A stretch of DNA of 64,000 bases, taken from Cyclina sinensis (lineage: Eukaryota; Mollusca; Bivalvia; Venerida; Veneridae). Shown in pieces: positions 1,531 through 25,711 of this stretch (the first letter of the stretch is position 1; each line of letters starts with the position of its first letter). The notes under the pieces were generated by a model. It worked only from the letters and a program-made list of their open reading frames with translations, did not search any database and was not told where the DNA came from. The translations under genes and the position numbers were made by a program. The stretch is from contig JAAONU010000001.1 of the NCBI GenBank assembly GCA_012932295.1, positions 51,991,134 to 52,055,133 of the forward strand, given 5' to 3'.

Positions 1531-3104
1531 TTAGGAAAAAACAGAGAACTTGTTCGCCTGCTTGTGTGGTTTGCCCTGCTTAAGGATAACCTGGAATGTT
1601 CGAATCTCCATGGGATTCAGTGTGATGTCCATTGGTCCAGTCAGTGACTCACGGTTCTCCACAAAATATAGGTTTTCTAGTAAATATACATGAATGTATG
1701 TAAAAAGCAATAAACTATGTTTTGTCAAAATGCCTTTCAATTTTATCACATTTTGATTTATATATAATTTTATAAGGACTTAAAAGTTGTGACCTAATTA
1801 TTTTACAGGTTCTTACATGGTGGACCTGAAGTAACAGACACGGTGTCTCTGGTTGCTCCAAACTTTAGGCAACCATTAAAACAATCATTACAGTAGGAAT
1901 CTAATTATGGTTGGCAATATTCACTGCTCAGTCATTACATCTTTTTAAATTATTACTACTTTCAAAGATAATTGTGAATGTCCAAACAAAAAGATGGAGA
2001 AGTCCATCTGGTAGATTTGAATGACAAAAGTTTTAAATGATTACTTACCTCTGTCACTGACCACCTGGTCCACTGTTTTCCATTTTAACCTGTCAAGCTT
2101 GGACAATGCCATGTTCGCACCTAGTGTTAGTTCCTCTACACTCTCAATGTCAAATGGCACAAACAGATCCTGGAAAAAATACAGGTTTGGTAAAGCATTA
2201 ATTTTTTTTTTATTTTTATGCCTACAATTTCTTATTTTCATTATCAGTAGCAAGTAATTTTACTGACTGAAGTTTCAACTCTAAGACTTGCCAATTAGTA
2301 TCAAAAAGTTGAATAAAGTTAAACTAAAAGTAAATACAATATATACCATGCCTTTGATGGTCAAATAATGAACAGGTTTACAAAGTACATTTGTAACTAC
2401 CTGTAGTGAGACAGTTGCAGGTTTTGACATTTCAGTATCTTCATCTTTCTCATAGAAATGTTCTAGACGTATCAGGTAGGGCTGGGTGGGTGCTGGCTCT
2501 ATTGTGGGTCCACCCCATTGCTCCAGGGTCAGCATGTGAACATTTGGAGGCAGATCTGTCTTCAAACCAGACCACTGAAACATACACATACATACTTAAA
2601 CAATTCCTTGCTACCTAAAGTTCAACCTCAGCACATAATTACATGCATGTTTAGTGTAAACCTTCAGAACCCTTTTTTTCACACCTAAATGCTAATAATG
2701 ATGGCTGAAGACAAGACCTCAAAATATGATGAGTAAGCTCAACTTAGTTTTATTTACTTTTATGAGAGATAAATTAATCTGCAGAATAACTCAAAAAGTT
2801 CACAAAAGTACACTTCCACATACTGATGAGTTATGTTCTATGGCATACCAGTCTGTCTAATTTACTTTCCAAAAGTTCATACCTAATCTTGTGTACAAAT
2901 CTGTCTACTCACAACCAAATTTCTAACAATATTTGATTTGTTTTTCAAAAGAACATACAGTGGTTTGGAAGTACTGTGAGTATTCTGAGTACTTCATGTC
3001 TGTTTTGGCAAATGCAGGGATTGGTGCCATGTATGTCTTCAAACCCATGTCTCTGTGCATCAAGGCTGAGTTTGCTATCGTGTCCATGAAAATATACATC
3101 TTTC
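1531..3104 (-). CDS. MAN2B1: MAN2B1 exons 23-26: C-terminal domain and stop
   Basis: Exon 23 (3104-2959) is the most divergent and encodes KMYIFMDT to [11 protein letters not shown]. Exon 24 (2574-2401) has [15 protein letters not shown] and the [10 protein letters not shown] segment. Exon 25 (2169-2049) has [19 protein letters not shown]. Exon 26 (1676-1531) has [18 protein letters not shown] and ends at a TAA-type stop after KFSVFS. The PMEIRTF motif marks the C-terminus in mammals too. Confidence 0.94.
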
Positions 3105-6100: not shown

Positions 6101-9100
6101 TTCAGCAATCTTATTCATGTAAACCATTCACTCACTTGACTGTCTTACTTACCTGTTACCATGCCGTATATTGGTCTCAAGTTATATGTTTTTGTCTTTA
6201 CAATGTTTAAACTATTGTTTGATTATTGAAATCCTCCCTCTGTTTTCCTTCTGTGTTATCATTCATATAAAGGATGTTTTTACACTTGAGTTTACAATAT
6301 CAATATAAGTGTGATTATTTATAGTTGAATAAAGGGAGATAATAATAAACGCCTTACTTTCTCATGAGTACTTCTCTCCCATTAGCATCTGTATAGAATA
6401 CCTTGTTTGAGTTCAGTGTTGTGTTGAATCTTGCTATGACTTCTTTACCACCTTTGTCACTATGACAAAATACATAGATAAATAATTAATATAAATAATA
6501 CATACCAGGGCAATGAGGCTGATTAAATATATATTATACCTGACAAAAATAACCAAGGCAATAATTAGGATGGATAATTTAAGCAACACTTTATATAAAT
6601 GATATGAAAAAGTACTGAATGTCTGCCATATATTAGATAACATATTCATTACCAGTAACTTCTATATAAAAAAATATTCATCAATATTTTAAACTAAAAT
6701 ACTTTTAAACAGATAAGAGTCTGTACCTATAGTAATTCCATTTCCAGATAAGTAAATCAGCTTTTTCTCTCTTAACTCTGTCCATAGATAACTTTTTTTT
6801 CACTTATTTAAATATATCTTACAACCAGTTCCCTTTTAAACTGAATTACAAGTTCTGATCTGCAGTTATGTCTTAGTAGCAGAGTGCAAAATAACTAATA
6901 TGAAACAGACTAACAAAACAACTCAATTTCTGTATCTTGCCAAGCCTGTATCAGTGATGAGTCAATGGGAACTTACTCTATTGGTATAGGTCCAACAGTC
7001 CACTCAATCTCTGCATATTTCTCTCCTTTATATATCCGGGACACCTGAGTAACCCAGGGGCTGAACTTCGTGTAAACCTCTTGTACCAGAGGACCCTTAA
7101 AGGAAAATTAGAAATAATGTTTTCAACTTCAACAAACCTTTGCAAGACAACTCAACACAGTCACACTTTCAACTTTATTAGTAAGGTATTACATTGTTGC
7201 CCTATATCATTAAAAAGTTAGGTAAGTATCTAGTGTATTTTATAGCAAGTATCTTAAGGAAATCCACTTTATAATGTTATAGTGAGACAAAGGTAATGAA
7301 AAATGTATTTCTCAATTGCATGACCGACTGTCATATACAAAATAAAAACTATACTGAAATTAGGAAATTCTTCTTATATGTCTCATTCCATATAATACCT
7401 GTTCAGCACTGCCAGGGTAGGACACCTTCCAGGTCTCTGGTACAGTCTTGTTTGGTCGGAAAATGTAAGCACCTGAAGGCTCAAACTCTGGTTTACTACA
7501 GTTTCCAGGGTGGGCATAGTAGAAGACAATATCTTGTTGGACATCCAGCTCCAAGCCACTTGCAAGGTTAGACAAACCCTTCAATGTTCCTGTCTTACCA
7601 TCAAACTTCAGTGTCATATGCTATTAAAAAAAAAGCTGTTGACATTTAACAACAGATTTTTGTTACCTTGACTTTCTTCATCAAGCAAACATTTTGAAAC
7701 AACACCTGTTAAACTGTAATGAGTATCACTGCTTACTGGAATGCATCAGCAGTTAACACAACATGGGCATAGGATTCTCTAGAAAGAATCTAACTTACTC
7801 AGGTATCAAAATAAATGCAGAAACTGCAAGTGCACATGTCTAACTAAACACAACACTCAGGAAAACAATATTACTGCAACATATTTTTTTGTCATTCCAG
7901 ATTGTGACAAAGTAAGAATAAAGGGAAACAAAAGCAGTAATTTTATACCGAACATACCTCATTCTTCATGACAAAGTCCTCATTATCTTTCATTATCTTT
8001 TTAACAGCCCTCTGTTGCTTCTTTTTCACATCACCTGAAATATTTTTTTGAGGAAAATGAAAGAATTTTGCAGCCCTATATAAAGGTAAAGGGCATATAA
8101 AGGTAACAGAGAGTATGTGTTCATTTTATGTCTTAGAAAATAACATCAAGTTAAACAAATTCATCGTTTTCAACAGATTTTTTAAGATTGTGCATATGTT
8201 TTGATAACATCACAATCTGCGGAAGAATATAACAATTCTTTCCATTCCCAGGGAGGAAAAACATGTAATACAAATCTCCTCTTTTTTTTTCACGGTCTGA
8301 TCTATAAAATATCTTAAATCCTGTAAAACATATTTACTAGGTTATCTCACTTACTGTTTGACATCCTAATGAAGTAAGTGCTGAAGCCAAGGGAAGGTAA
8401 CTTCACCTTGAATATGAGGTCATTAGCTGCCATGAAGCCCTTCCTTTCAGGAATGTCTTTGGTACGCTCTGTTACTGGGGAAATCTGAATAAAAACACTC
8501 TTGTTATTTCTTCTATTTGTAGTGTCAGTAAAAATGTTTTTAAATCTTACATAAAGTTTTGAACATCGAGTTCTTAAGTCTCAAGTCTTCAATTATATAA
8601 CTAAAGCTATTCAACTGACATCTTATAAAAAAAATTCAAACAGGTGTTAACAAGGTCTGGAATAATTTAAACCCTATAAGTAAAGATCATACATGATGAC
8701 TCTAATACGCAGACCAACTTTTCAAAAAGTACCCTTTTCCAATTGAAAACGTCTTTTGCTGAGATGCAAGATCCTTAAATTAGTCCCTTTTCTCTCCTTT
8801 TCCTATTTTATTATTTATCATATGTGGATGTTATTCATATTACAGATACAGAAGACTTTACCTGTGTTTCTATGACTTCATTGTTAGGGCCCATCACAGT
8901 GTATGCCTTGCCTACTACTGGCAGTCTGATCCAGCGGGATACTGCATGACCTAATGGGTTGTACACTACCATCACAAACTGTAATATAGAGTCAGTTAGC
9001 AGTTTAGGTTTTACACAACTATAAAACAAACAAACTACAAGATGATAGGAGATGTTTATCATGAAAAAAAAGATCAGTTCCATTAGTTTAATTCGTTATG

Positions 9101-12100
9101 TGTAACTATAAACTGCATCAAGGATTCCAAACTGTAGCCACATCTTAGACAACATGTACAGTGTAACTGTAAAATAGCCATAAGATCTCTATTGTTGTGT
9201 ATGACTGTACTGCTCATCCCCCTCCAGACATTTAATGCTATACTGATGGTAAAACAAATCTAAGCTTGTGCTGGAAAAAAAGACTTTACTAATGTATCTT
9301 AATGACTAAATTTTTAAACATTTTAATCTACCTTTTAATATGTAAATTGCCATTTAATATATAAATTGCTCATCAAACTAAACACTATCTTGAATGAAAG
9401 TATGATAATCAGATATAGCATAATATAAACTATGTCATTTTCCATATTTTCTACCAACCTGTTTATTGACCTCTGTGAACTGACAAGCACTTATGTTGAC
9501 TAAGTCACACCATACAAGTCCTGGGTAACCTTCAGAACCTTTGGGTATCAACCTGCCAAACGCATCATTCATAACTTTCTGAAATTTAAAAGCACAGTGT
9601 ACTGCTAATTTCTCTGAGTGCAAGACATTTTATTAAAACAGTTTTTGTGTATGTAATTTATAAAGTATATCAGTATTAAATAGCTTGTTTAACTTAGAAT
9701 CCTTCCTAGCAGTAAATATATACAGAACTGTTACAAGCTGAATCATAAAGACTATTGGTAACTATAAGTACAGGTAAATGCTTTTTATCTCAGCATAAAC
9801 ACTTTTTAATACAAAATATACAAAACTGTACAAGGGTTGTTTAATAAGTTCGCTGATATTATCATTTTACGTCCAAATTCAATCAAACTTGCAAGATATA
9901 ATATTACATGTTCACCTAAATTAGTTTTTCATTTTCAAAACAGTTTTAATTTTAAAATGGTATTTTACTTTTAACAATAATGCTACCATGGTAACGCTAT
10001 ATGGAGCATTCTGAAAACTGGACATAAGTCAGTATATAAATGTGTCAGTCAAAGCACGCCCGAATGTCATATAATCGCGGGAATTGATAACGTCATATAA
10101 CACAACGTCAACGTCATTTCTTGTAAATTTCAATGATGTATCCTATTTATATCTGCCATTAAGGTAATAATTTCTATATGACACAGAAAATCATGACGTC
10201 AACTTTACACATTGAAACTAGGGTGAGTATTAAGTTTTGCGTTAACCTGGGCCACACACCAATGGAAACATTCAAATTGCTACAGAAAACACAATCAACA
10301 GGATGCTGTAGAAGTATTGTTTTCAAATGGCATGAAAAATTTCACAATGGACGCCATATTTGCCAGATCTCGCGCTCATGGATTTCAGAATTTTTCCTGA
10401 ATTGAAGCGTCAATTGTGAGGACTGTGATTTGAATCAGGTTCTGAACTCAGTTTGAAGGTTCATTCCATTGTGTCATCTTTTCATGAGAGCTGGTATGCT
10501 TCCATTTATGACTAGTGGATTCGTCATCACGAGAAATGCATTGCTTGGTCAGGTGACTATGTTGAAAAGTGAACAGACGTTTATTTTCTGACGTTGACGT
10601 TCATTGATATTTACAACGTTGTGCTCTGTGGAATGTATATGTACCATTTGCTTTATATTGTTATGTGCATAGTTTATATTGCTAATTTACAGTGTTTTAT
10701 GTATTGTGTTTCTACTGAATCAAGGAACCAGCACATATAAATTTGATATATGTATTTTGTCATTTTCCTTCATAATACACCTTGTCTGCAAACTTATCAA
10801 ACAACACTCGTACTTTTGAAACAGACTGTGAATGCCAGTGAAGCCCTTAATTTAGTAATTTTTGATAACAGAAAACTAATCCAGTAAATCTTCTAGTATT
10901 TTGTGAACAAATTCAGAGAATTCTGTTGGAAATAAACTTTAAATGGCTCAAACACCACTGCTAAATGATTTTTGACTAAAGCACAGCAGAATGTTTCTTT
11001 TGTCATTTTTGAGTTTAAAAAGTGTAAGTAACAGAAACCCTTTATATTATTTAAATTGCATTTTTCCTTAAACCTACCATAAGCATTCTTCTAAAATACT
11101 GATTTCTCTAATTCTTGAGCAATACACAAAATCTGCTTTTAACATTTGTATAACTCACCTGACATTCAGACCTGCCATATGCCAGTCTCAAAGCATAATC
11201 ATATGCCACCTCTTGCTTTTCTGTTCCACTATAAAAACACAAATTATCATTAAATCATTAGCATTTTTTGGTAAAGAATAGACCCTATGCTGACCTTAAG
11301 CTCAATCGTAACATTGTATGGAAGGGCATTTGCCCCAATATGATATTTGAGCAAGTAACTATATAAATATCAGAGCAACCCTCAACAGTAGAAAGGTTGT
11401 AAAAAAATACTTTAAGAAGCACTAACAACCTTTATGCAGTGTAGCATCAATTGGATTTTTAAAGTAAAAAAGACTGAAGATATTCAGGTGACATTCTAAA
11501 CATGTAAGTGTATAATAAGAACTTACGACACAGCATCATGATGTTGTGCAACTCCCATAGCTTCCTCTGAAAGGAAAGAAACTAGCTCACTTTCATGCAA
11601 TGATAATGTGTGGAAACGGCTTGACATACATGTAAATAAAATTTATTAATTGAAATATATTATTTTGATTAATGCTATCATGGCATTGCCAGAAGGCAGT
11701 TAGTGGCAACAAAGGATTCTGTAATTATTGGAATACAACAAAGGCTTTAACAGAATGGCAAATTTATTTTCAAAGGGACTCAATCAGTTTCAGATATCCT
11801 ATACTTTATTACACTCAGCCCAAAAATGTCAAAGAAACCCAAAAACTTTGTTTCATTTCTTTTTCACACCCCTGCTGATGAAAAATAGGGGAACATTTTA
11901 CCCAAGAAAGTTCAACAATAACCACCACTTCCATCAGTGACCTAAAATGTTTCACAAAGCCATAATATTGTAGTGAAAAACAGACAGTAAAGAACGAACA
12001 TACTCAGTATCTGGATGTTGTATGTGCTGTTGTGTGTGTCCTCTAGCATTGCCAAGGCATCCAGCTGTTTACATGCCTAGATGAACAAGACATATAAAAC

Positions 12101-15100
12101 CATGGAAGAAATTTTACAATTTTTGAGTAGTAGATTTCTAAAAGAAAATTTATATCATATTTCATTAACAGCCTTTAAACTACACCAATAAACTACTACA
12201 ACTATAAAACTGGTGAATCAATCTGAATCAATGATATTTTATACTTTTGACATAAAGAAAGTGATGTTTTAAGTGCAATAGCACTTATAAAATAACATGT
12301 GTTAATGTTAAAACAAATCTAAATAGTAAAAACAGTACATTGGCAATTACTCATAAAAATATATATCTCAAATACCATCTTGAATAAATGCTAAAACTTA
12401 ATGCAGAGATAATCAACATGGTATTCTAGCAAGCTAGGTAAGTACAGAATATCTTAGTGTTAGAAAAAACAGGAGTAAAGCAAACCTGGAGGAAAGCATT
12501 GGTTTCTCTCACATATCCTTTAAGTGCTGCTCTGCTTGTGAAATATCCAGTCCAGAAGCTGTGTTTAGCATGTGCATATGGGAAAAAGTCGTCACTTTTT
12601 GTAGGCCACATTTTGTCAGCTCGGTTCAGTTGATAAAGGTAGCATGAAGGTGTAGAGTACAATACATTTATTTTTGAGTTGTTTGTCTCTTGCTGCAGTA
12701 GAAAACAGGGATAAAATACTTTTAAATTTTGTTCTTAATTATTTGTTTGAATTTTCTGGCAGTTACAAAATTTATTGTGTATTATGTAAATCATTACCTG
12801 TATCAACTCAACCAAACACAAGAGCTCTGGGATATATTAAGTAAAGGATAGTGTCACATCTGTGGGAGCTATGAGTCATTTTTGCTGTGAATAGGTGTCA
12901 CAACACTAGGGACTGTTGTCACATTCAATGTGGAATGTCACACATGATAAGGACTTGTGTCACATACAAATATTTTTACATCAATACCTGCAGAAAATTA
13001 TTTGTCTCACGTATGTACTGTTTAAGAGCTGGTCTGCTTGTAAAAAACCCAGTGAGAAATCCATGTGGAAACATACCATAGGGGAAAAAGTCATCATGTT
13101 TCATTGACCATGTTTCATTTGCTTGGTTTAATTGATACAGGTAACATGATGGGGTAGAATACAGAACATTGATTTTAGAACCATTTGTTTGCTGCTGAAA
13201 GTTTAAATAAACCAGGCAATTTGTAAAACCAACATAAGTACACTCCCTAAGGGCAAATAGTATTGTAATAGACAATCATTCTGAAAACGAAAACAAAACG
13301 AAAACAATAAAAAAAACACACAAACAAACTGAAAATACAATACTGAACATGCAATGTTTTATAAGCTACACAGTCTAAAACTTTGCTAGGATTCATTAAG
13401 AGTATTTCTGTTCAATTTATTGAAAACTAAGTAAACTGATAATGTATAAAGTATGGACTGTCATCACAAGTGTCCTAAATTTTATTGACAAAAAGCCCTA
13501 CTGGTGTAAGAATGCCAACATCTTACCAGCATGTTTGTATATTTGATAAGTTTGTCCATGTTCTTGTACCAATGTTGAGCACTCTGGTACTGGAAGTCTG
13601 AACCCATTGTCATTATTATATGGTTAGTCTTGTAGTGACTGGCCTAAAATGATAAATGAGAAAGAACTGTTAACTAGCAAACACAGGTTCATCAACTATC
13701 CTCAAGTCATAATTCAGCTTTCAAATGTTCGCCTACAGATATATCCTAGTTATATCTTTAATCAAATTTCACTGTTATGTATTTCTATGATAAAATACCG
13801 TATGTACTGTTTTAAGAGTTTCAGAAAATTTAAATGTCAAATTTTCTGAACAAATCTGGAGATACAGTTCAATATGCAATTAAACAGTGTCACAAATTTG
13901 TTTTTATTTTGACTTTCAACATCAATCTAATTTATACTGCACTGAGTTAATCTCATTACTTCCAAGGCTCTTGTTTGGCAAAATCTGGGGCCTAATATCA
14001 GCCCGATTTCCCTCTTAAAATAGTACCGGGGCATGTTTTTCCCCCCTATTCCAAAACAAATCCCCATTGAAAAAATGATGAGCAGACATAGATGAAAAAT
14101 ATCTAAAAATCATGCAAAATTTCCACTTCATTGGACCCTGGTCCCAGTCTAAAAATGCTAACGAGAGCCCTGACTTCATATATTTAGAAGTCTTCATAAA
14201 GTACTACCATATATAAATTTCAAGATCAATAAAAATTGCCAAAAATCACATGACACTTGGCCATACATAGTTGAGAAGAAAAAAATTAAGTTCAAAATAT
14301 TCATTCATCAAGTAAGACTGTCTTGTTTGTCTTCCTTAGCCTACAGTCTAAATATAGAACAGTGAAGATGGGATATTTCAAAAAAAGTTTTCTTATTTGG
14401 GATATATAATTCAATAGCTTGTCCTATGTAAGACCAAAAAAGGACTCAACAGCTCCCTGATATTAATTAAAGTATTAAATAATGGGAGAACCATCTCTGG
14501 CAATTAACAACTCTTTGTTTTCTTCTTTCAGAAAAAAAATGACTTCTCCAAAACAGACAACAGGTGGTCAAAACTCTTGCCTTCCTTTTTGAGCTGGATA
14601 AGCTTTGAACAGGTGTGTATCTATATGTACCTGTGTCTGCACAGCTTTGACAAAGTCTTTGACTTTCTGGTCCACATTGTAGTCATGGAGACGAGGATCA
14701 TCCTATAAACATATAAGATACTTAATCTGGAAAATGTTTTTACATATTTATTCATTTACCAATGAATTTGTTCAGTGTAAGAAGAACAACACAATGTTCA
14801 AAACTGAGTAACTACCTATCAACAAACTGGTAAGTACACAACATACAAGAAACATGTCAAAGACATTAATGCCCCCTGAAACATGGCAATGGGCACAGTC
14901 ATGGAAGCTTATAACTTGATGTTACCTTGATCATTTGCAGTCTGTGAACTGAACAATCTAGAGGCCTAGGTGAGACTATTATATGTCCTTTACCCCTTTG
15001 CATGGCTGGTAGAAGTAATAAATTTCCCAAAATGATGTGTTTCAAGAGATACTGATCTAGTGTTTTTTACCCATAGGTCACCACATGTCTTTTACAGAAA

Positions 15101-18100
15101 AGGTGTTTCAAAACAGTTTCTTAGCTTACAACTTTTGGATTTTATGCTCCGGTTGAACACAACAGGTGAAAATATAGTTCAATCATAAAACTGTAGGTGT
15201 TGCAGACTGAAGCACTACTGAGTTAAATTTAAGGAAAGGCAATAACTCCACTAAAGATCATCAATATCAAAAGTCTGAGTATATGCACTGTGGCACTTGA
15301 TAATAATCATTGTGTGAAAGACTGGTGAAAATTTCATGAGAAATGTAGGAGAAGTTGTGCACAGAAGCAATATTAAGTAAAATTTAACTAAGGGCAATAA
15401 CTATGTCAAAAATATTTGAATTGCAAAGGCCAGACCAAATGCACTGTGGCACTTGATAATGATCATTCTATGAAAGGTTGGTGAACATCATATGAGAATG
15501 GTAGGGGGAATTGTGTATAGAAGCAATATTAAGCAAAATTCACTTTCTAATGATCTTTCTGTGAAAGTTTGGTGAAAATCACATGGGAAATGTTAGCGGA
15601 GTTTTGCACACATGAAATACTAAGTAAAATTAAACAAAGGATAATAACTGCCAAAAAAAAACAAATCTCAAAAGCCTGAGTACAGGCACTGCGGCACTTG
15701 ATCATGATCATTCTGTGAAAGTTAGGTGTAAATCATTTGAGAATTGTGGGAGCCGTTGCACACAGAAGATGGGATGGATGGACAGATGGAACAATGGAAG
15801 GACAGTATGACTACTATATGCCACCCTTGGGAGTCATAAAAATGGGAGCTCAACACTGAATGTTATCATCGAATATACTGTAATCACCAATTATAATCAG
15901 CAATGAACTATAACACATGTTTTTACAAAGATAAACATACCTGTCATTTAATAATAAACAAAATGAGCAATATCTTAAATAAAGCTTACTGTTTCCCAAT
16001 CAAGCATTTCATTAAAAACTAGCATAAATTAATGTTCTTACTTTTTAATGAATACAAATAGAAATTAATTACTTCAAATCCGATATGAAATAACAATCTG
16101 ATATGAAATAACAATGTGTATTTAAGACATGGAATAAAAGACAAATCTGCACTGTTTCTTTACTCAGGCTTGCCACAAGCCCAGACTTCTCACAATTATA
16201 AGAGACAAAAATATCCAAGAATTATTCACTTTTTTCATTTTAAGGTAATTAAATATTCGTCCAGTGGTTTATCAGGAGTTTCAAACATTGTTCGCACAGG
16301 AAATGGGTAGAAAATTAGGAAAATACCCTTTAAAGACACAAGGCATGAAAGACAAATGAAAGATTTACCATTTAACAAATGAAATTTGCTAGGTCACAGT
16401 TTATTTAAGCTTACTTATATACTTTACTGGCATTTAACTCTTTGTTAATACTCTGCTTTGAATTCAAATATGACAAACTTTATCTAATGTTTAAAAATGG
16501 TAAAGAAGTATCTATTTAATGAAAATGCAGATAGAGTCAATGTAAAATTATCAAAAATTAGCAACACATTATTACACATATTTTAACTGCCTGTGTGAGG
16601 TAGCTATTAAAATTCTTTAAAAGGAATACAACAAGGAGACCATTGGCCCCGAAGCGCTCACCTGAGGACAGACTGTTATTTGTGTGGAAGCTATCATTAT
16701 TTTTTGTAAATCTAAGCTTTAGCCTTTGAAGCTTCAAAGAATAATTTTCTTATAAGTTTTTACTAAATGCAAATAATGAATATCTATGACCTCCGGGCAG
16801 GCCCAATTTTTACCCCGGATATAATTTGTACAAACTTGGAACAGGTTCACTAGACAATATTTCATGCCAAATAATTAAGCTTAAGGCTTTGCCATTTCAG
16901 AGGATAAGATTTGGTAGAGGACCTATAGATGATATCATATTCCAAATACCAAATCTCTAGCCTTTGTCATTTCAGAGAAGAAAATTTTTTAAGTTTTTAC
17001 TATATACATATATGGAAAACCTATGACCCCCCTGGGACAGGGCCAAGTTTGGCACTAGGGGCATAATTTGAACAACTTTGGTAGAGGACCTATAGATGAT
17101 ATCATATACCAAATATCAAATCTCTAGCCTTTGTCATTTCAGAGGAGAAAATTTTTTTTTTAAGTTTTTACTATATACACATAAGGAAAACCTATGACCC
17201 CCCGGGGCGGGGCCAATTTTGAGACTAGGGGCATAATTTGAACAACTTTGGTAGAGGACCTATAGATGATATCATATACCAAATATCAAAGCTCTAGCCT
17301 TTGTCATTTCAGAGGAGAAGGTTTTTGAAGTTTTTACTATATACATATATGGAAAACCTAACCCCCGAGGGCGGGGCCAATTTTGGCACTAGGGGCATAA
17401 TTTAACAACTTTCGTAGAGGACCTATAGATGATGTCATATACCAAATATCAAATGTCTAGCCTTTGTCATTTCAGAGGAGAAGATTTTCTAAGTTTTTAC
17501 TATATACATATAAGGAAAACCTATGACCCCCTGGGGTGGGGCCAATTTTGGCACTAAGGGCACAATTTGAATAACTTTGGTAGAGGACTTATAAATGATG
17601 TCATATACGAAATATCAAAGCTCTCTGCCTTGTACTTACTGACAAGAAGATTTTTTTAATTTGCATTTTTGAAACTTCTTTTTTGGCCCTGTGACCTACT
17701 TATGCAACAGACCAGAACCATTTGAACAACTTTGAAAGGGGACCACCCATGGATCATTCCTGTGTAGTTTGGTTAATGTACAGTCATTGGTGCCAGAGGA
17801 GATGTTGTTTTTATGAAATTGTTGACGAGGCACGACGCACACCGCATGACGATGGATGCCAGACACAGGGGGATCACAAAAGCTCACCATGAGCACGATG
17901 TAAAAACATACATAACAACAGAATGAATATGAAGGTACTGAAAGTATACCCATACCATGATAGGGTCATCATCACAGAACACATCAAAACAAAAGCCACT
18001 AGGCGGCTGGTAAAGGTTGGGTAAAACACCAGTAAACAGGTCAGCCTTCGACCCTGAAACATTGCCACATTGACACTCTGTATTTCAATTTACCACTACA

Positions 18101-21100
18101 GTTCCATACAACCCAAAACTGACAGCTCACAAAAAACAATCACAGCAACAGCAGATGTAGTTAATTTATCAAACAATAGAATGGACAGGCCTTGTCCCCC
18201 TCACCTCCCCCACACCCCACCTACACCCCTGCCATCTTAAAAAAAGAAAGAAGAGTTTGACCAAAAAATTAAAACAGCAATAAACCCTATGCAAAAGTGT
18301 TTTACAAATGGCATAGGCAAAGAAAGAGGAAAAAGCAGACCAAGTATTATCTGTGAAGATCATGACTTGTGTTCACAACAATTCAACACACTTCCATGTG
18401 AAGTAACAGTAACACAAATGTCATGATATGCGAGACAAACAGACAAAATGGGAAATATAATGAGGACTACACACTGTACTCAAGTGACAATGTCAACCAA
18501 ACAGAACAGCGAAGACTGAGATTTATGACATGTATTGCAGTGCAGGATACACTTCTGTGCAATTTCAATGAGCACTACACAGTTTAGAATACACTACACA
18601 GTTCAGAGAAGATGTGCACTACACTTTTCATTGCAGTTATGGTGTGTCAAACACATTTAAGAGCAGTAACTTTGTGCGCATTACAAAACAGAACAGTTCT
18701 GGAGCACACTTCACAGTTCTGTTGTAAATGTGCACTTCTCAGTTACAGATAGACTAAAATACACACTGCAGTACAAAAATAAGGTATGCATTATACACTG
18801 CAGTGCAAAAAAAGGTATGCACAATACACTGCAGTGCAAATAGTGGTGTGAACTCGTTACACACTGCAGTGCAAATAGTGGTGTGAACTATATAGCACAG
18901 TGCAAATAGTGGTGTGAACTACATAATAAAATGCAAATTAATTTTTTCCAATACACCATTTAGTGCAGAGCCAGAGATGATAGTGTGCAATACAGTTAAG
19001 TGCAGTTTAAGGTGTGTGCTAAAAAGTGTGGGGAGGAAATGTACAAAATAATGTTAAGTTCATAGTTTGGTTTATATTACTCAGTTTCTTACAACAAAAT
19101 CAAGTGCACTGTTACATTATTGCTTTGATATTCAGGAAAGAATTATGGTGAGCACACAGGAAAGGGCTGAATTATATGTTACCTGTATGGGATCATCACT
19201 ACAGAACAGATCAAAACAGTAGCCGCCTGGAGGGCCATACCCATTGTACAGAACACCTGTAAACAGGTCTGCTTTCTCCCCTGGATTAATGAGTAATGTT
19301 TACAAAATTAGTACAGTGCTATCCAGTAGAGATAGACATCTGAATTTCAGATATTTTTTTCTGTTTAAGTAGTAATAACTACTTCATTATAACACACCCA
19401 AACTGCTTTAACATCACAGCCAAGATGCATACAACTTTTTAAGAATCTGTATCAATTATTTCATGTGAGAATACCAGAGGTTATATCAGTAATATCAATG
19501 TATATACCAGTAACTCTACTTAAAGCCATTTCTTGTTTCCGTACAATGGTAATAATAATCCAAATGACTATCTCTATGATTTCAACAAGATATTGCCACC
19601 AAATGGTGTTACCCAGATGAGGCCTAAAAAAAAGATAATGATGATAATTTCAACAAGACATTGCCACAAAAAAATAGTGAAAGAATGTCAAGACAACAGG
19701 AAATTAAAAATTTGTAGTCAACAGAAAATAAGCATAGCATCAAACAGATAAAACATCTCATTAAAAAAAAATCTCAGGGAAAAAGCAGACTGTTTCGTTA
19801 GGCTGACACAATGGGTAGAAATTAAAATTCAGATAATCACTTCATGAAATATGAAGGGCTTCTACATTAAAACCACTATCATTTTGAATTTTAACCTTAA
19901 AACGGAAAGTAGCTAGGACTGACTTTATACAAGAGATATTAGAATAAGAACTGTGTTTTACGGGCTGAGAATATGACCACTTAAGTCCATGAGAGCAACA
20001 GTTCTGAATTTTATAAGCACATACATGTAACTTTGTTTCCCTATGGTCTACATTTCCTCATATTCCAAAACAAATCATTATTTCCTATTCATATGAAAAT
20101 CAGCTAAGATTAAAAAAGTCAAGGGCCATAATTCTGTTCCAAGCAAGAAAAGTACACAAAGCTACCCCCAAGGTGCAAAATTTCAAACACTAATCACAAT
20201 TTCTAGAAAGAAAAACATAGTTTTCAAAGTGTTTGTAAAGTGGTAAAAAATAAAAACCCTTCCACTCCTGATATGCTTGTCCAAAATCAATACATTTAAC
20301 CATTGTTTTAAAATTCTAAATTTTGACCTTTTAAGTTCATAGAGGGTCATTTCGCCTAACCTACCTTATAATGACAAAGAAACAGAGCACAGCGGCTACA
20401 TGTTCTACCATGTCCTAAGACCATGATAAAGGTAACTTGCTTACATCTTGTTTTTATATCTACAATCTCTGGAATGAACTTTTGAAAACAGATCAAAGAC
20501 AATAAACTGAGGAAGGTAAGGTTGTTGGGGAAACTACTGGTAGTATATAAAGTTACAATGCCTTGTATGATACAAAATTACCTGAATAGGGTCATCATTA
20601 CACATCATTATATCATAACAGAAGCCATTGGGTGGGTTATAATGATTGAAAAAGACACTTGTAAACAGGTCTGCTTTCTCCCCTAGGTTAATCAAAGACA
20701 GGACATCATGATAAAATAAAACAGGAGAAAATGTAAAAGTTCCAACACTAATGATTAGATTACAAGAATACATGTATAAAGTTTTAGTGGCATTAACTAA
20801 GTCTCTTATATATCTAGGCCAAGCCATTATGACCATTAACAGTTTGTTAAAAGACAAACCAAGCATAAGCATTACATACAACTATTATATATAACATTTA
20901 TTACAGTTAGTTATATAAACTAAAGTTTAAAAAAAAACCATGCCCTTTACAAAACAGCCCTAAAATTCTGGGTCTTAATATGTCAAACATGCTTCTCTAA
21001 GATTATACATATATAATGTAACAAAGATTAACTCAGATAAATAATATATTCCCAAACACAGGTCATGATAATCATGATAATCAGCACATGAATACAAGTG

Positions 21101-24100
21101 ACCATAAACCTTTAAAAGATTTTTCAGATCTTACCCAGATTTTTCGGGCTTCCATGCCATAACATTTCCATGGTGATATTCTTTAACCTCTCATTTTTAT
21201 CCTGGAAGTCTAAACGTCCAAAGAACAAGCCATCAAAGCCAAACTAGAAGTAAACAATCATACTGGTATATATATCAAAGGCAATAGTTAAGTGTGACTT
21301 GTTCTATCAGCAGCTGTTAAGTTTTCACTAAACATTCTACACTGGAATTACCTGTGTTTGAAATATGCTGTAAAAAACTACTTGTTTAGCATATAGAAAA
21401 CTGCTGTTTCTGAGTTTGAGTGAAACAGAAGTTTAAAATACAGGTTAAACAATCTGAAATATCTACAAGGGATAATTCTTATAGAATGAATACAGAAAAA
21501 CTAAGTTTCAAGTGAGAAAATATCAAGGACTTCATTAAGTGACACCCAGCATACATGCACCAATATTGTCCTAGATCTGTTTAAAGTCTTTAGAAACATA
21601 GAAAGTCACATTTCTCAAAAACCTTGAGGATTAAGGAGTAAACTCTATAAGAAACTGCAGTTGACAAAATACACTGCATAAATATCTGTGATACCTGAGC
21701 AAAGAGTGAGGCTTGTTCTCTGGAGTGACCAAATGGATCAATCTGCCAGCCTATCTTTGGTCTTCCGCATTCACCAAAGTTTTGTCTGAGAAATTCAAAG
21801 CCGAGAGAATGTTGGTCTATGATGGCATTGTAGTGAGTAGCTGCTTCGTCGTTCATACACCAGCCGCCCAGGATAAACTCTAACTGACCTATATGTATAG
21901 ACAGAAATATATATACAGTTTTATAAGTTCTTAAAGTTTCAAAATACAATGTCATGGTTTTTGTAGTAAAGTATACAGCACATCTTAAGTTTTAGAAAAC
22001 CAGGTGTCTGAAAAACTTCATGCTGAACTTGTAAGGAAAATTGTGAACAGAATTTTATGAAATCACCCATGCTAATATTTTATCAGACATGCATCGGTTG
22101 AATATGTACATCGTCATTACTACATGTAGTTTGGATAACATTTACAAAAGTAAGACTACCATCTGTTTGAATTTGTAAAACTCTTTAAAAGCTTTTGCTT
22201 GGAGCTCAACAATAATATTATATAACTTTAATATTATATAACTTGTAGAGGCTGAAGTACCTTTTATGGGCAATGTTTGATCATAAGATCTAAAGTGCTT
22301 CAGCATCACTATTAGAACTCTTATTACAGAATAAAGTTAAGTACAGTAACAGTATCATATTCCTTTGCTTAATGTACTGGTTGTAATGAAATTTCAACAA
22401 TATGTGCCATTACACAAACTGCATTTCTGGCATATATGCTAACATGTAAAATCAACATACTTGTGTTATTGCAAGACTATGACCATAGTCTCATGAAGAA
22501 GACATGAGAAAAAGCCTATGTCTATTTCAAGGTTTTTATCTGATCTTGAATTGATTACAAGGTTCAAAGGACAGTGATTTTGTATTAGGAAATTCCTATA
22601 AAAATGAAAGCTCTATAATACTGTACAAATGTATATTCTTACCCATTAAATTTCAAGGTTTGGTCTTTGCTACAAAGATTATAAGAATGATATTCTTTCT
22701 TTGGCACCAGCTGTCAACCATGATACTATTTTATTTATAATTAATTAAAAAAAATCACAAAATGTTTCTATTCTTTCAACATACCACTGTTGACAAGGCC
22801 TTTCACCACATGTCTCATGCTGTCATGTTGTTCCCTCCACCAGCGTGCAAAGAATGCTATCTCCACATAGATGAAACGCTTTGTAGGATCGGCAAGAAGC
22901 TGGGGTATAACAGTGTCCAGGACATACTGAACTCCTGCATTCTGGATGTTGTTCCTAGCTGTAAATGAAACAAACCTTTAAGAAGAAATACAGGTAGTAC
23001 TTCCTGTTGATAAAGTAAAGCTAAATTTGATTACAGCAACAAGAGCATGACATTTTCCAATTATGCAGATTTAAAAAGTAATGGTATTCAGCCTGATGAA
23101 TCAACCTACAATTACAGCATGACATTTACCAATTATGCAGATTTAAAAAGTAATGGTATTCAGCCTGATGAATCAACCTTAGTCACATGGATAAAAACAT
23201 TAGTTTGTTTTAGCCCGAGGATCTGATATTGTATGCACACAAATAGTATTAATTTAGAATGTAACAAATACCTGTATAGGTTTAAGTTATGTTATACATT
23301 TGGGGGTTGGGGATGGGTTTTAAGAACTCCTCACATGGGGCAGAGAGCTCTTGCAAATTTTTTATTTCAAAAATGATTCTATGACAACTGATATGAAAAT
23401 CCGAATCACAGATTTTTAACATCGTATTTAGTCTTATTCTAGTCTAATGATGACATAAATGTTAGTATTCTACATATGCACTATTTTAAGGACACCACTT
23501 ATCTGTATGAGCTTGTTCAACATACTTACCCTTTGATATGTAACATGACACCAATGATACCAGTGTTTTAAGAGCACTGACATTGTTTATTGTATTTATC
23601 GTATGACATTTTGACTATCTAAATAAGGCCATATTCATAGACAAAGTCAGCCCATTTATAAACAGAGAGCATTTATCAAGTCTGTATGATATAGTTCAAC
23701 ATACTTTAAAGATACAAGTACAACTGAACAGATATAGCATCTTTGCTTCCATATAATGCTGTCTGCAAACAATTTCTTTTTCAATTTTGTAAGACTCCCT
23801 GGACCAATCTGAACTTTCTGAACACTTATGCCCTTTTAATCCAAGAACACTTCCTAAATGTTTAAAATTTCTGTCAGAAATTTGGTTCTGACAATTTTTG
23901 AAAACTGATCAGAATGAAAGAATTTCTGTCTGACTGATAACAAACTTTTTAAAACATTACTTTGAAAAACAGCAAGGCTGTCAGACAGTTTTCAGATAGT
24001 CTGCCTAAGATGACAAGTCTACTAGTATCATTTATTTAGACTGTTAATAACTTTCTCCATTACATTTGTAAGTGAACATTTTTCATGAACTATGATTGTT

Positions 24101-25711
24101 TTTGCAGTTGCCATTAAGGACAATTACATGTTATTTCCAATATTTCATAGCTCTTCCTCATAACTGAAAACTTTATATCAATTTAAAGTCTTGCAATTTA
24201 ATTTCTTCCAATGACTTACACCCATAGAAGTACTGGTCAACAGTTTTCAGCCAGCCAACGTCATCATGTGTATGTGGAACCAAATGTACATTTACCATGT
24301 CATCTTTAACTGGGTTACAACTCTGAAGTATACAAATATATTAAGTTTAACTCAGGGTTTTTTTCCCCCCAATCTGGACTTCCTCTATCATGCTTCACCA
24401 TGTTGCAAAAATAGCTAGCCGATAGGCAATAATATATCTCTACTATAAAGCTTAAAAGAGATGATTGTAATTTTTGGCAATAATTATAATTCTTGAAACT
24501 TAGATAATTTCTTCTTGGTAAGTGATGTTCAAAGTCTGAACCAGACTGCTACAGAGCTGTCACAGACTAAGCTCTCTGAAGATATTACAATATTTGAATG
24601 ACAATAATAATTTCAGTGCCATAGCTACTTGAGGCACATCGAGGCAGATGCCTATGTGTTTTTTGGGCATATACCATTTTCGATAGCTCTAAAACGTAAC
24701 TCCCAGTAACTTTTCTTATTTGCCTTCATTCCACCAAAAACTACTCCAGAATGCAAGAAATCGCTCCAAGCAAACAACCATTTCCTGGGGAACATGCCCC
24801 CGGACCCCACTGAATATGTTCTGCCTCGGTGTTTTTTCAGGTCTGGCTACGGCACTGAATTTGATAAAATAAAATGTACACATAATACTTGAAGTTATAC
24901 CCTACAAAGCTACATGTACAATGAAGTGTATATTCACATTTCTTATCTAAGCATTTCAAACTGAAACCTTTTAGTGCTGGTTACCCATACGAAGAAGATC
25001 ACAGAATAGTCTAATTTATTGAGGTTGTGGGGGACTGCGCAGGACAAAGATGATCTGACTGTCAAAATAACGTCAAGCAAAAAAGCTTGGTTGAATGTCT
25101 TGTCGGAAAAACAAAAAAAATCAACTTTTACTTGATACTGCATAACAAGTGATACATGTAACAATTACAACTGTCAGGCGAATGTCAGAAAACACGAATT
25201 TAGTCTGCCATAACAAAAATTAATTTAGATTTGTCTGAAGTGTTCACTGAAGCTGTCTGGCCAGAAAAGAATTAGTTACAGCAGCTGTGGATCTAACTGC
25301 AACCCCTTGATTATAGCATTACACCAGCAAGTATTTAAAAATTAAGGAAATTAAATGCTGGATGATGTAGTAAAACTTGTGATTTCAAATCTGATTTGAT
25401 TTTAGGAGTTAACTCCTGCTGAATATCGAAGTATTAAAGGTATTATCCAATGACTGCATGCATAGATACGTTTGACCGGTAAGTTATCTAACAGTTTTCT
25501 GCAGTGAAATTATACTAAATACAGAGGAAGAATATAATTTTTCAGTCTTCCACGAAAACAATGACCGGCTATATTTTCAAGTAGAAGTATTTACAGGCAA
25601 AATTGGTAAAATACTTACTCCGTATCCACATTCAGCGTCTTTCTGTCGTACAGAAGCAGACTGACAGGTTGCCACAAAGCAAACGACACAAATTAAGGTT
25701 GTAACACGCAT
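1531..25711 (-). CDS. MAN2B1: Lysosomal alpha-mannosidase (GH38), complete gene, 26 exon positions
   Basis: The enzyme is a secreted or lysosomal zinc hydrolase that removes alpha-linked mannose from N-glycans. Exons in transcription order: 25711-25619, 24322-24220, 22958-22785, 21888-21695, 21243-21135, one of three exon 6 versions, 14702-14631, 13643-13527, one of two exon 9 versions, 12076-12004, 11566-11527, 11228-11159, 9578-9459, 8978-8862, 8484-8355, 8034-7958, 7620-7399, 7095-6977, 6459-6358, 5707-5620, 4888-4802, 4525-4435, 3104-2959, 2574-2401, 2169-2049, 1676-1531. With one 98-nt exon 6 the coding length is 3090 nt, exactly 1030 codons with stop, close to the roughly 1010 residues of mammalian MAN2B1. 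Every junction is GT-AG and phases match. Family motifs run in order: [91 protein letters not shown]. The Asp of IDPFGHS is the family nucleophile. Confidence 0.97.
3140..3770. repeat. Degenerate dispersed tandem-type repeat in MAN2B1 intron 22
   Basis: Three to four diverged copies of a unit of roughly 130 bp recur. Each has a phrase like 'ggctgagtg...acacaaa', then 'ggcaataactccgct', then 'tatcccagtgaagtt'. It resembles repeat families common in bivalve introns. Confidence 0.6.
4435..7095 (-). CDS. MAN2B1: MAN2B1 exons 18-22
   Basis: Exon 18 (7095-6977) has [18 protein letters not shown] and EWTVGPIPI. Exon 19 (6459-6358) has [10 protein letters not shown]. Exon 20 (5707-5620) has [19 protein letters not shown], with an N-glycosylation sequon. 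Exon 21 (4888-4802) has [18 protein letters not shown]. Exon 22 (4525-4435) has [19 protein letters not shown]. These are the most conserved parts of the C-terminal half and align directly with mammalian MAN2B1. Confidence 0.95.
7399..9578 (-). CDS. MAN2B1: MAN2B1 exons 13-17: middle region
   Basis: Exon 13 (9578-9459) has [12 protein letters not shown]. Exon 14 (8978-8862) has [20 protein letters not shown], aligned to mammalian VIVYNPLGRKV. Exon 15 (8484-8355) ends [15 protein letters not shown]. Exon 16 (8034-7958) is Lys-rich ([19 protein letters not shown]) and longer in charge than the mammalian counterpart. Exon 17 (7620-7399) encodes [15 protein letters not shown] and SGAYIFRPN. Phases connect throughout. 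Confidence 0.93.
9831..10810 (+). mobile_element. Internally deleted mariner-type DNA transposon in MAN2B1 intron 12
   Basis: The element is 980 bp long, flanked by TA on both sides (9829-9830 and 10811-10812) as mariner insertion requires. Terminal inverted repeats of about 23 bp match at 19 positions (left starts CAAGGGTTGTTTAATAAG). Positions 10178-10402 encode a recognisable mariner transposase N-terminus ([20 protein letters not shown], then [11 protein letters not shown]). Near 10480-10575 the transposase C-terminus appears ([16 protein letters not shown]) with an in-frame stop. The catalytic middle is missing, so the copy is dead but may once have moved in trans. Confidence 0.85.
10178..10575 (+). 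pseudogene. Mariner transposase remnant (N- and C-terminal pieces)
   Basis: The N-terminal helix-turn-helix region and the last 30 or so residues of a mariner transposase lie only about 80 bp apart, with stops between and within them. The DDD catalytic core has been deleted. The reading direction is opposite to the host gene. Confidence 0.8.
11159..12076 (-). CDS. MAN2B1: MAN2B1 exons 10-12: second zinc-ligand motif
   Basis: Exon 10 (12076-12004) starts [11 protein letters not shown]. Exon 11 (11566-11527) is only 40 nt long and encodes [12 protein letters not shown]. Exon 12 (11228-11159) completes the split Ser codon and continues [18 protein letters not shown] to SECQ. HHDAVSGT is the family motif that supplies a zinc-binding His. 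The Cys in ACKQL and in SECQ correspond to a disulfide pair in mammalian lysosomal mannosidase, as I recall it. Confidence 0.94.
12486..12692 (-). CDS. MAN2B1: MAN2B1 alternative exon 9b (second of two)
   Basis: This 207-nt exon (69 codons, phase 0 at both ends) encodes [34 protein letters not shown] and [10 protein letters not shown]. Acceptor is CTGCAG, donor GTTTGC. The FWTGYF core with Trp is the standard family form. It lies 295 bp downstream, in transcription order, of its sister exon 9a. Joining both in one mRNA would stay in frame and simply double the segment, so reading frame alone does not force a choice. Confidence 0.9.
12988..13194 (-). CDS. MAN2B1: MAN2B1 alternative exon 9a (first of two)
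   Basis: This exon of exactly 207 nt (69 codons, phase 0 at both ends) encodes [35 protein letters not shown] and [10 protein letters not shown]. Acceptor is TTTCAG, donor GTATTG. It is 49 of 69 residues identical to exon 9b. It keeps the Cys of STPSCYL and the KHDDFFPY form seen in mammals, but has Leu (codon CTC) where exon 9b and mammalian MAN2B1 have Trp in the FWTGYF motif, and YGMF where mammals have YADG. Confidence 0.9.
13527..14702 (-). CDS. MAN2B1: MAN2B1 exons 7-8
   Basis: Exon 7 (14702-14631, 24 codons) starts DDPRLHDYN and ends AVQTQ. Exon 8 (13643-13527, 39 codons) contains [17 protein letters not shown] and [11 protein letters not shown], the family signature between the nucleophile and the second zinc-ligand motif. 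Both begin and end on codon boundaries, so any exon 6 version can join upstream and either exon 9 version downstream. Confidence 0.94.
15200..15850. repeat. About 140-bp degenerate tandem repeat in MAN2B1 intron 6
   Basis: Roughly four copies share phrases such as 'gcactgtggcacttgataatgatcatt', 'gtgaaagtttggtgaaaatca' (broken here by divergence) and 'gttgtgcacagaagcaatatt'. The block ends in 'ggatggatggacagatgg', a tail often seen on such bivalve elements. Confidence 0.65.
16630..17890. repeat. Tandem-repeat element between exons 6c and 7 of MAN2B1
   Basis: Five to six copies of about 145-bp units recur, each with 'ggcactaggggcataattt', 'aacaactttggtagaggacc' and 'agcctttgtcatttcagagg'. The whole is bracketed by GCTCACCTGAGG near 16660 and AAAAGCTCACCATGAGC near 17880, which suggests one mobile unit with an internally amplified core. 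Its right edge lies about 65 bp from the donor of exon 6c. Confidence 0.7.
17956..18053 (-). CDS. MAN2B1: MAN2B1 alternative exon 6c (third of three)
   Basis: This 98-nt exon encodes the segment starting [17 protein letters not shown] and ending CDDDPIM, with acceptor TTTCAG and donor GTATGG. By eye it is the version closest to mammalian MAN2B1, which has [10 protein letters not shown] at this point. The Cys-X4-Cys pair (CFDVFC) is present. It is separated from exon 7 by 3.25 kb of repeat-rich intron and from 6b by 1.1 kb containing short degenerate repeats. Confidence 0.9.
18530..19030. repeat. Short degenerate repeats between exons 6b and 6c
   Basis: Units of about 30-36 bp built on 'cactgcagtgcaaatagtgg' and 'tgtgaact' recur, clearest from 18760 to 18935. 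The stretch is intronic, between two competing exons. Confidence 0.65.
19183..19280 (-). CDS. MAN2B1: MAN2B1 alternative exon 6b (second of three)
   Basis: This 98-nt exon encodes the segment starting [17 protein letters not shown] and ending CSDDPIQ, with acceptor TCCAG and donor GTAACA. Its entry and exit phases are identical to exons 6a and 6c. It shares 23 of 32 residues with 6c. The Cys-X4-Cys spacing typical of lysosomal alpha-mannosidases is kept (CFDLFC). Confidence 0.9.
20582..20682 (-). CDS. MAN2B1: MAN2B1 alternative exon 6a (first of three)
   Basis: This 101-nt exon encodes the segment starting [17 protein letters not shown] and ending CNDDPIQ. It has an acceptor ending CCTAG and a donor GTAATT. 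It begins with two bases that complete the Gly codon left by exon 5 and ends on a codon boundary, like its two relatives. It matches exon 6b at 21 of 32 aligned residues and 6c at 20 of 32. It has one extra codon (Met-Met-Cys where the others have Phe-Cys), so the family Cys-X4-Cys pair becomes Cys-X5-Cys. Which version is normally used cannot be told from DNA alone. Confidence 0.88.
21135..25711 (-). CDS. MAN2B1: MAN2B1 exons 1-5: signal peptide and start of the catalytic domain
   Basis: Exon 1 (25711-25619) starts at an ATG with A at -3 and encodes a hydrophobic signal peptide ([18 protein letters not shown]), then CGYG. Exon 2 (24322-24220) carries [12 protein letters not shown], whose His and Asp are zinc ligands in the family. 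Exon 3 (22958-22785) contains GVQYVLDTV and [13 protein letters not shown]. Exon 4 (21888-21695) contains GGWCMNDEA and [16 protein letters not shown] with the catalytic nucleophile. Exon 5 (21243-21135) carries [15 protein letters not shown] and ends with one base of a Gly codon, which sets the phase required of exon 6. Intron 1 holds a short inverted-repeat element and intron 3 a 72-bp duplication. Confidence 0.95.
23044..23187. repeat. 72-bp direct duplication in MAN2B1 intron 3
   Basis: Two nearly identical 72-bp copies begin at 23044 and 23116 (AGCATGACATTT start). This is a simple recent tandem duplication. Confidence 0.8.
24614..24857. mobile_element. Short inverted-repeat element with 5-bp target duplication, MAN2B1 intron 1
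   Basis: The 244-bp element begins CAGTGCCATAGC and ends GCTACGGCACTG (11 of 12 bases inverted). It is flanked on both sides by AATTT. It carries the core 'gaacatgcccccggacccc', also seen in the element at 29393. No coding capacity. Confidence 0.75.

What the first reader, a model, noticed from the sequence alone, without database searches (positions are those of the whole stretch)
17956..20682. Three interchangeable versions of MAN2B1 exon 6
Three homologous exons (20582-20682, 19183-19280, 17956-18053) lie in a row, all open, all with GT-AG sites. Each starts by completing a codon with two bases and ends on a codon boundary, while exon 5 leaves one base and exon 7 starts a codon. So the frame is kept only if exactly one is used: skipping all or joining two breaks it. 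This is the sequence logic of a mutually exclusive exon cluster. I know of no report of this for lysosomal alpha-mannosidase.
Basis: partly seen in the sequence, partly recalled or inferred. Interest (0 to 1): 0.87.

Follow-up and report, generated by a model that had tools for sequence, protein, structure and literature searches.

The report
One mannosidase gene, six predicted pockets
A gene, likely from a clam, for the sugar-cutting enzyme lysosomal alpha-mannosidase carries three versions of one exon and two of another; probably only one of each is spliced in at a time, which would let a single gene make up to six enzymes with different sugar-binding pockets.

Summary
Confirmed and extended. 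The minus strand holds a GH38 lysosomal alpha-mannosidase (MAN2B1) gene, about 25711 to 1594, closest to Mercenaria. Three homologous exon 6 versions have intact GT-AG sites, and the frame survives only if exactly one is used. By alignment, exon 6 carries the pocket Tyr269 and the Tyr267 position, and exon 9 carries Trp415, which is Leu in 9a (roles from PMC13204073, PMC10012049). The versions look selected (NG86 dN/dS 0.25-0.33 in the 2 of 4 pairs where dS could be computed), and 6b/6c look older than the split from Mercenaria (AU p 0.007 against sisterhood). Two paralogs in the same genome have single exons 6 and 9. The 9a-9b intron holds an element complementary to both 9a and 9b (both scores reached in 0 of 5000 shuffles): a candidate docking site with exonic selectors. 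Not shown: any RNA. 6a was found in no relative examined, 9a in no heterodont orthologue listed; cluster 9 has no frame lock; the age of 9a is unresolved. Best reading: a mutually exclusive exon system that would remodel a glycosidase pocket.

The parts
21135..21243 (-). Exon 5, 109 nt, leaves one base of a codon
20582..20682 (-). Exon 6a, 101 nt; residue before the pocket Tyr is His
19183..19280 (-). Exon 6b, 98 nt; residue before the pocket Tyr is Gly
17956..18053 (-). Exon 6c, 98 nt; residue before the pocket Tyr is Leu; 30 of 32 residues as Mercenaria
14631..14702 (-). Exon 7, starts a codon; joined straight to exon 5 it gives a stop
13527..13643 (-). Exon 8, constitutive
12988..13194 (-). 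Exon 9a, 207 nt, phase 0/0; pocket Trp replaced by Leu
12486..12692 (-). Exon 9b, 207 nt, phase 0/0; keeps the pocket Trp
12792..12818 (-). Element in the 9a-9b intron complementary to 13146-13120 (9a) and, in its part 12817-12795, to 12641-12619 (9b); candidate docking site
19384..19401 (-). Piece of intron 6a-6b complementary to 20645-20628 in exon 6a (17 of 18); suggestive only
18327..18341 (-). Piece of intron 6b-6c complementary to the first 15 nt of exons 6a and 6b; suggestive only
1594..25711 (-). Whole MAN2B1 gene as seen by homology; exon 1 predicted at 25711-25619; exons after 11159 placed only roughly

Best explanation
This gene carries two separate sets of homologous exons, three versions of exon 6 and two of exon 9, and the splicing machinery likely includes exactly one of each, so that one alpha-mannosidase gene is predicted to make up to six forms that would differ in the sugar-binding pocket. 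Shown in the sequence: homology, open frames, intact GT-AG sites, matching phases, and for exon 6 a frame that survives only with one version. Inferred: that all versions are used. For exon 6, products with none, two or three versions would carry premature stops and would likely be removed by nonsense-mediated decay. For exon 9 the frame gives no protection; exclusion would come from a short element in the 9a-9b intron that is complementary to coding sequence of both 9a and 9b and could pair with only one at a time (a docking site with exonic selectors; predicted, my confidence in this step about 0.4). The versions keep the pocket tyrosine but change its neighbour (His, Gly or Leu), and 9a replaces the pocket tryptophan by leucine, so they would alter which mannose linkages or glycans are cut (inferred).
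For: Exon model and frame logic, 6 of 6 combinations open to the end of exon 12. No further copies in a six-frame scan. NG86 dN/dS 0.325 (6a/6b) and 0.248 (6a/6c); dS saturated for the other 2 of 4 pairs with dN 0.24 and 0.23; under neutral simulation the observed residue identity is reached in 22, 8, 0 and 0 of 5000 runs. 6c matches annotated proteins of Mercenaria 30/32, Dreissena 28/32 and Ruditapes 26/32; 6b is the nearest version to Mactra, 24/32 against 22/32 for 6c. AU test rejects 6b+6c as sisters, p 0.0069. Two MAN2B1-like paralogs in the same genome have one exon 6 and one exon 9. Docking element: both pairings reached together in 0 of 5000 dinucleotide shuffles of the intron, predicted duplexes -39.0 and -34.8 kcal/mol; 13 of 13 constitutive exon-intron pairs stayed below their shuffle maximum, lowest p 0.045. 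Exon 6 versions as a set exceed shuffled introns in all but 2 of 300, while none of 10 control exon pieces does (lowest p 0.12). Pocket mapping by alignment, residue roles from passages of PMC13204073 and PMC10012049.
Against: No RNA was available, so use and exclusivity are untested. No 6a-like exon in the proteins aligned, and a dedicated search gave 1 candidate and no significant hit (its word filter is strict, so weak as a negative). None of the heterodont orthologues listed (P0001, P0002, P0003, P0005, P0006) shows 9a. Using both or neither exon 9 keeps the frame. Strong inverted repeats are not rare in the window: 5 of 424 sliding pairs reach the 9a score, possibly including this place itself. 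For cluster 6 no single complementarity survives correction for 12 tests (lowest p 0.005 and 0.007, at or near the limit set by 200-300 shuffles), and 6c shows none. All three exon 6 versions as one clade is not rejected (p 0.0717). Bovine LAM has Met at the Tyr267 position and human Gly (recalled sequence), so a change there need not alter function.
Confidence: 0.74

Rival explanations
1. Only one exon 6 and one exon 9 are really used (probably 6c or 6b, and 9b); the others are relics of tandem duplication that still look intact.
For: 6a has no known relative; 9a is seen in no heterodont orthologue listed; an open frame by itself is not strong for exon 6 (neutral simulation leaves 43-46% of copies open).
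Against: Intact splice sites in 5 of 5 versions; residue identity above neutral expectation and dN/dS below 0.33 where it could be computed; 9a open although only 6.7% of neutral copies would be; 6b/6c split older than the split from Mercenaria.
Confidence: 0.14
2. The extra exons serve mainly to lower output: wrong combinations make stop-carrying mRNAs that are destroyed, and the protein differences matter little.
For: For exon 6 skipping, all three pairs and all three together give premature stops.
Against: Exon 9 pairs carry no such trap; changes fall at positions described as pocket and selectivity residues; single versions keep the frame and are conserved as protein.
Confidence: 0.07
3. 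The exons are alternative, but the 9a-9b complementarity is a relic of an inverted exon fragment or chance, and proteins binding the pre-mRNA make the choice.
For: Weaker resemblance to exon 9 extends past the 27-nt core in the antisense reading; 5 of 424 sliding pairs of the window are as complementary; pairing with coding sequence is unlike the intronic selectors described in PMC6071210.
Against: 0 of 5000 shuffles match both scores; none of 13 constitutive pairs exceeds its shuffles; paralogs with one exon 9 lack it, score 21.
Confidence: 0.45

Closest known systems
Mutually exclusive exon clusters from tandem exon duplication (Dscam, Mhc, 14-3-3zeta; human tandem duplicated exon events)
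   Same: Neighbouring homologous exons of like length and phase; for exon 6 a frame that allows one only.
   Different: Here in a lysosomal glycosidase, in two separate clusters that both map to the catalytic pocket. In human events such regions tend not to overlap small-ligand binding sites (PMC9741552, passages).
Docker-selector competing RNA structures (PMC6071210, abstract and discussion read)
   Same: One element complementary to several copies of a duplicated sequence; only one pairing can form at a time.
   Different: The candidate docker sits in the middle intron, not left or right of the cluster, and its selectors lie in coding sequence. Untested in cells and in other species.
Oyster alternative oxidase with duplicated exon 10 (PMC5589949, abstract read)
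   Same: A bivalve enzyme in which alternative copies of one exon change residues around functional sites; the abstract calls it the first such case in a mollusc.
   Different: One exon pair at the 3' end, expression shown. Here two internal clusters (3 x 2), expression not shown.
Vertebrate lysosomal alpha-mannosidase (bovine structure 1o7d)
   Same: Same GH38 family and the same pocket motifs by alignment.
   Different: As far as I recall (not tested here) the vertebrate gene has one version of each of these exons.

Membership tests
GH38 lysosomal alpha-mannosidase (MAN2B1) | GH38 N-terminal and middle domains | tested here: met
   PF01074 4.9e-83 and PF09261 1.9e-18, both over the curated cut-off
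GH38 lysosomal alpha-mannosidase (MAN2B1) | Closest to named lysosomal alpha-mannosidases, zinc and nucleophile motifs aligned | tested here: met
   Best hits P0001 and P0002, 73% and 71%, are named lysosomal alpha-mannosidase-like; HTHDDVGW and IDPFGHS align with bovine and fly chains (residue roles recalled or from PMC13204073)
GH38 lysosomal alpha-mannosidase (MAN2B1) | Activity in lysosomes | not testable with these tools
   no protein experiment
Mutually exclusive exon cluster | Adjacent homologous exons of the same phase and near-equal length | tested here: met
   6a/6b/6c 101/98/98 nt; 9a/9b 207/207 nt; same phases within each set
Mutually exclusive exon cluster | Open frames and intact splice sites in every version | tested here: met
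   5 of 5 alternative exons
Mutually exclusive exon cluster | Frame allows only one version (common, not obligatory) | tested here: inconclusive
   met for exon 6, not met for exon 9
Mutually exclusive exon cluster | Transcripts contain exactly one version | not testable with these tools
   no RNA reads available
Docker-selector RNA switch | One element complementary to a site in each alternative exon copy, pairings exclusive | tested here: met
   cluster 9 only: element 12818-12792 against 9a and 9b; 0 of 5000 shuffles match both
Docker-selector RNA switch | Docker in the intron left or right of the cluster, selectors in introns | tested here: not met
   element lies between 9a and 9b and pairs with coding sequence
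Docker-selector RNA switch | Pairing conserved or compensated across species | not testable with these tools
   no genomic DNA of related bivalves was available; the two same-genome paralogs lack the element

The most novel reading that the evidence does not exclude
A bivalve rebuilds the active site of one glycosidase by combinatorial splicing: two exon clusters (3 x 2) swap two parts of the catalytic pocket and give a six-enzyme panel from one gene, and the exon 9 choice is made by an antisense intron element that seizes coding sequence of either 9a or 9b, a central docking site with exonic selectors. In other molluscs (Mya, Littorina) the same pairing of Leu before the Tyr with loss of the Trp is carried by separate proteins.
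Probability: 0.27. Interest if true: 0.85.

Novelty: new variant of a known kind. Interest (0 to 1): 0.72.

Why it matters
If the versions are used, the catalytic pocket of a housekeeping lysosomal enzyme is rewritten by splicing at two places, which makes glycan specificity an RNA-level choice. It would show splicing and separate proteins reaching a like pocket change in different molluscs, and it supplies natural variants at positions (Tyr267, Trp415 equivalents) discussed in work on inhibitors selective between Golgi and lysosomal mannosidases. The 9a-9b element is a compact test case for how exon duplication could create an RNA switch.

Tried and rejected
Considered and rejected: one inverted exon copy as the source of the cluster 6 complementarities (pieces not colinear); further hidden exon copies (none); assembly duplication (versions differ at 25, 28 and 31 of 96 nt within exon 6 and 68 of 207 nt in exon 9).

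Tried without a clear result: that 9a is an ancient exon shared with gastropods. In a 179-row tree 9a groups with P0078, P0121 and P0178 (96/88), but in smaller trees it does not, and AU tests reject neither 9a inside the heterodont clade (p 0.27; 0.405 with the motif columns removed) nor 9a+9b as sisters (p 0.225). All three exon 6 versions as one clade: p 0.0717; 6a+6b as sisters: p 0.536. Isoform footprints among 217 listed proteins gave no clean pair; 20 of the top 20 rows involve one aberrant willow model, P0185. The link between L/M/I before the Tyr and loss of the Trp (5 of 18 against 5 of 166, Fisher p 0.0009) includes the window's own 6c+9b row and is not corrected for kinship. YN00 failed for 4 of 4 pairs; for NG86 one Met codon of 6a was dropped to align it. 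Structure prediction was not tried.
Full report
Observation. The window's minus strand carries a lysosomal alpha-mannosidase gene. A tblastn guide search placed its matches from 24325 to 1594, and a scan for a start exon put exon 1 at 25711-25619 (predicted). In the model of exons 1-12 (to 11159) each internal boundary has AG or GT. Pfam gives Glyco_hydro_38N and Alpha-mann_mid. The nearest proteins are Mercenaria mercenaria (73%) and Ruditapes philippinarum (71%), so the animal is likely a heterodont bivalve. Skipping gives an immediate stop, each of the three pairs a stop at aa 322-323, and all three versions a stop at aa 294.

A second cluster. The same gene carries two versions of exon 9, 13194-12988 and 12692-12486, each 207 nt and phase 0/0, with 49 of 69 residues identical. 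An ungapped six-frame scan with 15 exon peptides shows no other copies. So 3 x 2 = 6 combinations exist, all open to the end of exon 12. Unlike exon 6, skipping exon 9 or using both keeps the frame.

Where the variation falls. In the alignment with fly Golgi mannosidase II (chain numbering plus 30, checked on the nucleophile Asp204 in IDPFGHS) exon 6 covers Tyr267, Tyr269 and the neighbourhood of His273, and exon 9 covers Trp415. A gap lies next to the Tyr267 position, so that assignment is less sure. [quoted passage not shown] Passages of PMC10012049 put Trp415 in a hydrophobic pocket with Phe206 and Tyr727; the same paper finds the Phe206-Trp415 contribution to one inhibitor's binding insignificant. 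All three exon 6 versions keep the Tyr269 equivalent; its neighbour is His (6a), Gly (6b) or Leu (6c). 9b keeps the tryptophan, 9a has leucine. Among the 217 proteins listed (the best 120 of 4504 and of 185 hits), 11 lack this Trp, among them molluscs P0007, P0026, P0038, P0042 and P0078 and the unnamed P0121. L/M/I before the Tyr is found in 5 of the 10 countable rows that lack it and in 13 of 174 that keep it, the window's own row included (kinship not corrected). In Mya and Littorina that pairing sits in separate proteins (P0007; P0038 and P0042). These facts suggest, but do not show, that the versions differ in specificity. Bovine (Met) and human (Gly, recalled) also differ at the Tyr267 position.

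Are the versions functional? NG86 dN/dS is 0.325 (6a/6b) and 0.248 (6a/6c); for 6b/6c and 9a/9b dS is saturated while dN is 0.24 and 0.23. Under random substitution of the same number of sites the observed residue identity is reached in 22, 8, 0 and 0 of 5000 runs. 6c agrees at 30, 28 and 26 of 32 residues with the proteins of Mercenaria, Dreissena and Ruditapes; 6b is the nearest version to Mactra (24 of 32, against 22 for 6c); 9b agrees at 63 of 69 with Mercenaria. An AU test on a quick tree of 32 columns rejects 6b and 6c as sisters (p 0.0069), and 6c falls with Mercenaria (support 76, not strong), so that split likely predates the split from Mercenaria; all three versions as one clade is not rejected (p 0.0717). 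The age of 9a could not be settled. A dedicated search for 6a relatives found none (one candidate only, so weak as a negative).

Internal control. The own genome (903 Mb, 154 contigs) holds two further MAN2B1-like genes on the same contig. Each has one exon 6, with the same acceptor phase, and one exon 9; scans of 30 kb each show no extra copies, and exon 9-intron complementarity is low (score 21 up and down). The duplications are therefore particular to the window's gene among these three.

How the choice could be made. For exon 6 the frame alone would remove wrong products through premature stops (inferred). For exon 9 another device is needed. The 295-nt intron between 9a and 9b contains an element (12818-12792) complementary to 13146-13120 in 9a (score 51, 0 of 5000 shuffled introns) and to 12641-12619 in 9b (score 39, 1 of 5000); both together in 0 of 5000; predicted duplexes -39.0 and -34.8 kcal/mol. 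Of 13 constitutive exon-intron pairs none exceeded its shuffle maximum; the lowest p was 0.045. The two pairings use the same bases and cannot form together. Pairing with 9a would loop out the 9a donor, pairing with 9b the 9b acceptor, which would be a switch (inferred). This resembles the duplicated-arm model of PMC6071210 (abstract; discussion), but with the docker in the middle and the selectors in coding sequence. Caution: 5 of 424 sliding pairs of the window, perhaps including this place, reach that score. For cluster 6 the 12 exon-intron pairs together exceed all but 2 of 300 shuffles while none of 10 control exon pieces does, yet no single element survives correction for 12 tests and 6c shows none.

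Prior knowledge. Six paper searches (listings seen) in the open PMC subset returned no report of mutually exclusive exons in an alpha-mannosidase; the main texts of PMC3228551 and PMC9741552 do not contain the word mannosidase. Most subscription journals are absent from that library. The nearest mollusc case met is oyster alternative oxidase (PMC5589949, abstract). PMC9741552 (passages) notes that human duplicated-exon regions tend not to overlap small-ligand sites, which makes pocket-swapping exons unusual.

Verdict. Expression, exclusivity, the RNA switch and the change in specificity remain predictions.

Noticed in passing
window 33081-33818 (-): ORF of 245 aa matching the last part of LPMO_10 (PF03067, E 1.2e-6), likely an exon of a lytic polysaccharide monooxygenase gene.
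   Followed up: partly
window 41739-42806 (-) and 61205-62257 (-): An open 355-aa Sulfotransfer_2 ORF (E 1.1e-34) and a second, similar stretch spread over several frames (PF03567 1.4e-11 in one piece), perhaps a decayed duplicate.
   Followed up: partly
G000:C3:6358102, C16:37316527, C5:21737195 (L001-L003): Three GH38 N-terminal matches that cover nearly the whole domain inside single open frames of 1083, 787 and 1092 aa, unlike the many-exon MAN2B1 genes; further matches in frames of 904 and 887 aa start inside the domain. Origin not examined.
   Followed up: no
L009-L011 and L012-L014 (G000:C1:17.22 Mb and 17.35 Mb): Two very similar MAN2B1-like genes about 130 kb apart with single exons 6 and 9; their exon 6 reads DNVYWPP.
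   Followed up: partly
window 16821-17745: Tandem array with a period of about 165 nt in the long intron 6c-7; repeats of about 155 nt lie at 15199-15785 and GCACTGCAGTGT-type repeats in intron 6b-6c at 18760-18920.
   Followed up: no
protein P0121 (jgi, contig of 2878 bases): An unnamed protein with both a HLYQAP exon 6 and a 9a-like PHGFLTGFF exon 9 (53 of 68 residues as 9a, 44 as 9b); its nearest row, P0046 (72%), has the Gly and Trp forms.
   Followed up: partly
protein P0027 (Haliotis rubra isoform X4): Annotated isoform that lacks the stretch of exons 5 and 6; in the window that double skip (109 plus 98 nt) would also keep the frame.
   Followed up: no
window 12792-12800 (-): The candidate docking element contains CAGGTAATG, which looks like a 5' splice site; the matching exon 9a stretch reads TTACCTG, like the 5' end of U1 RNA (recalled).
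   Followed up: no
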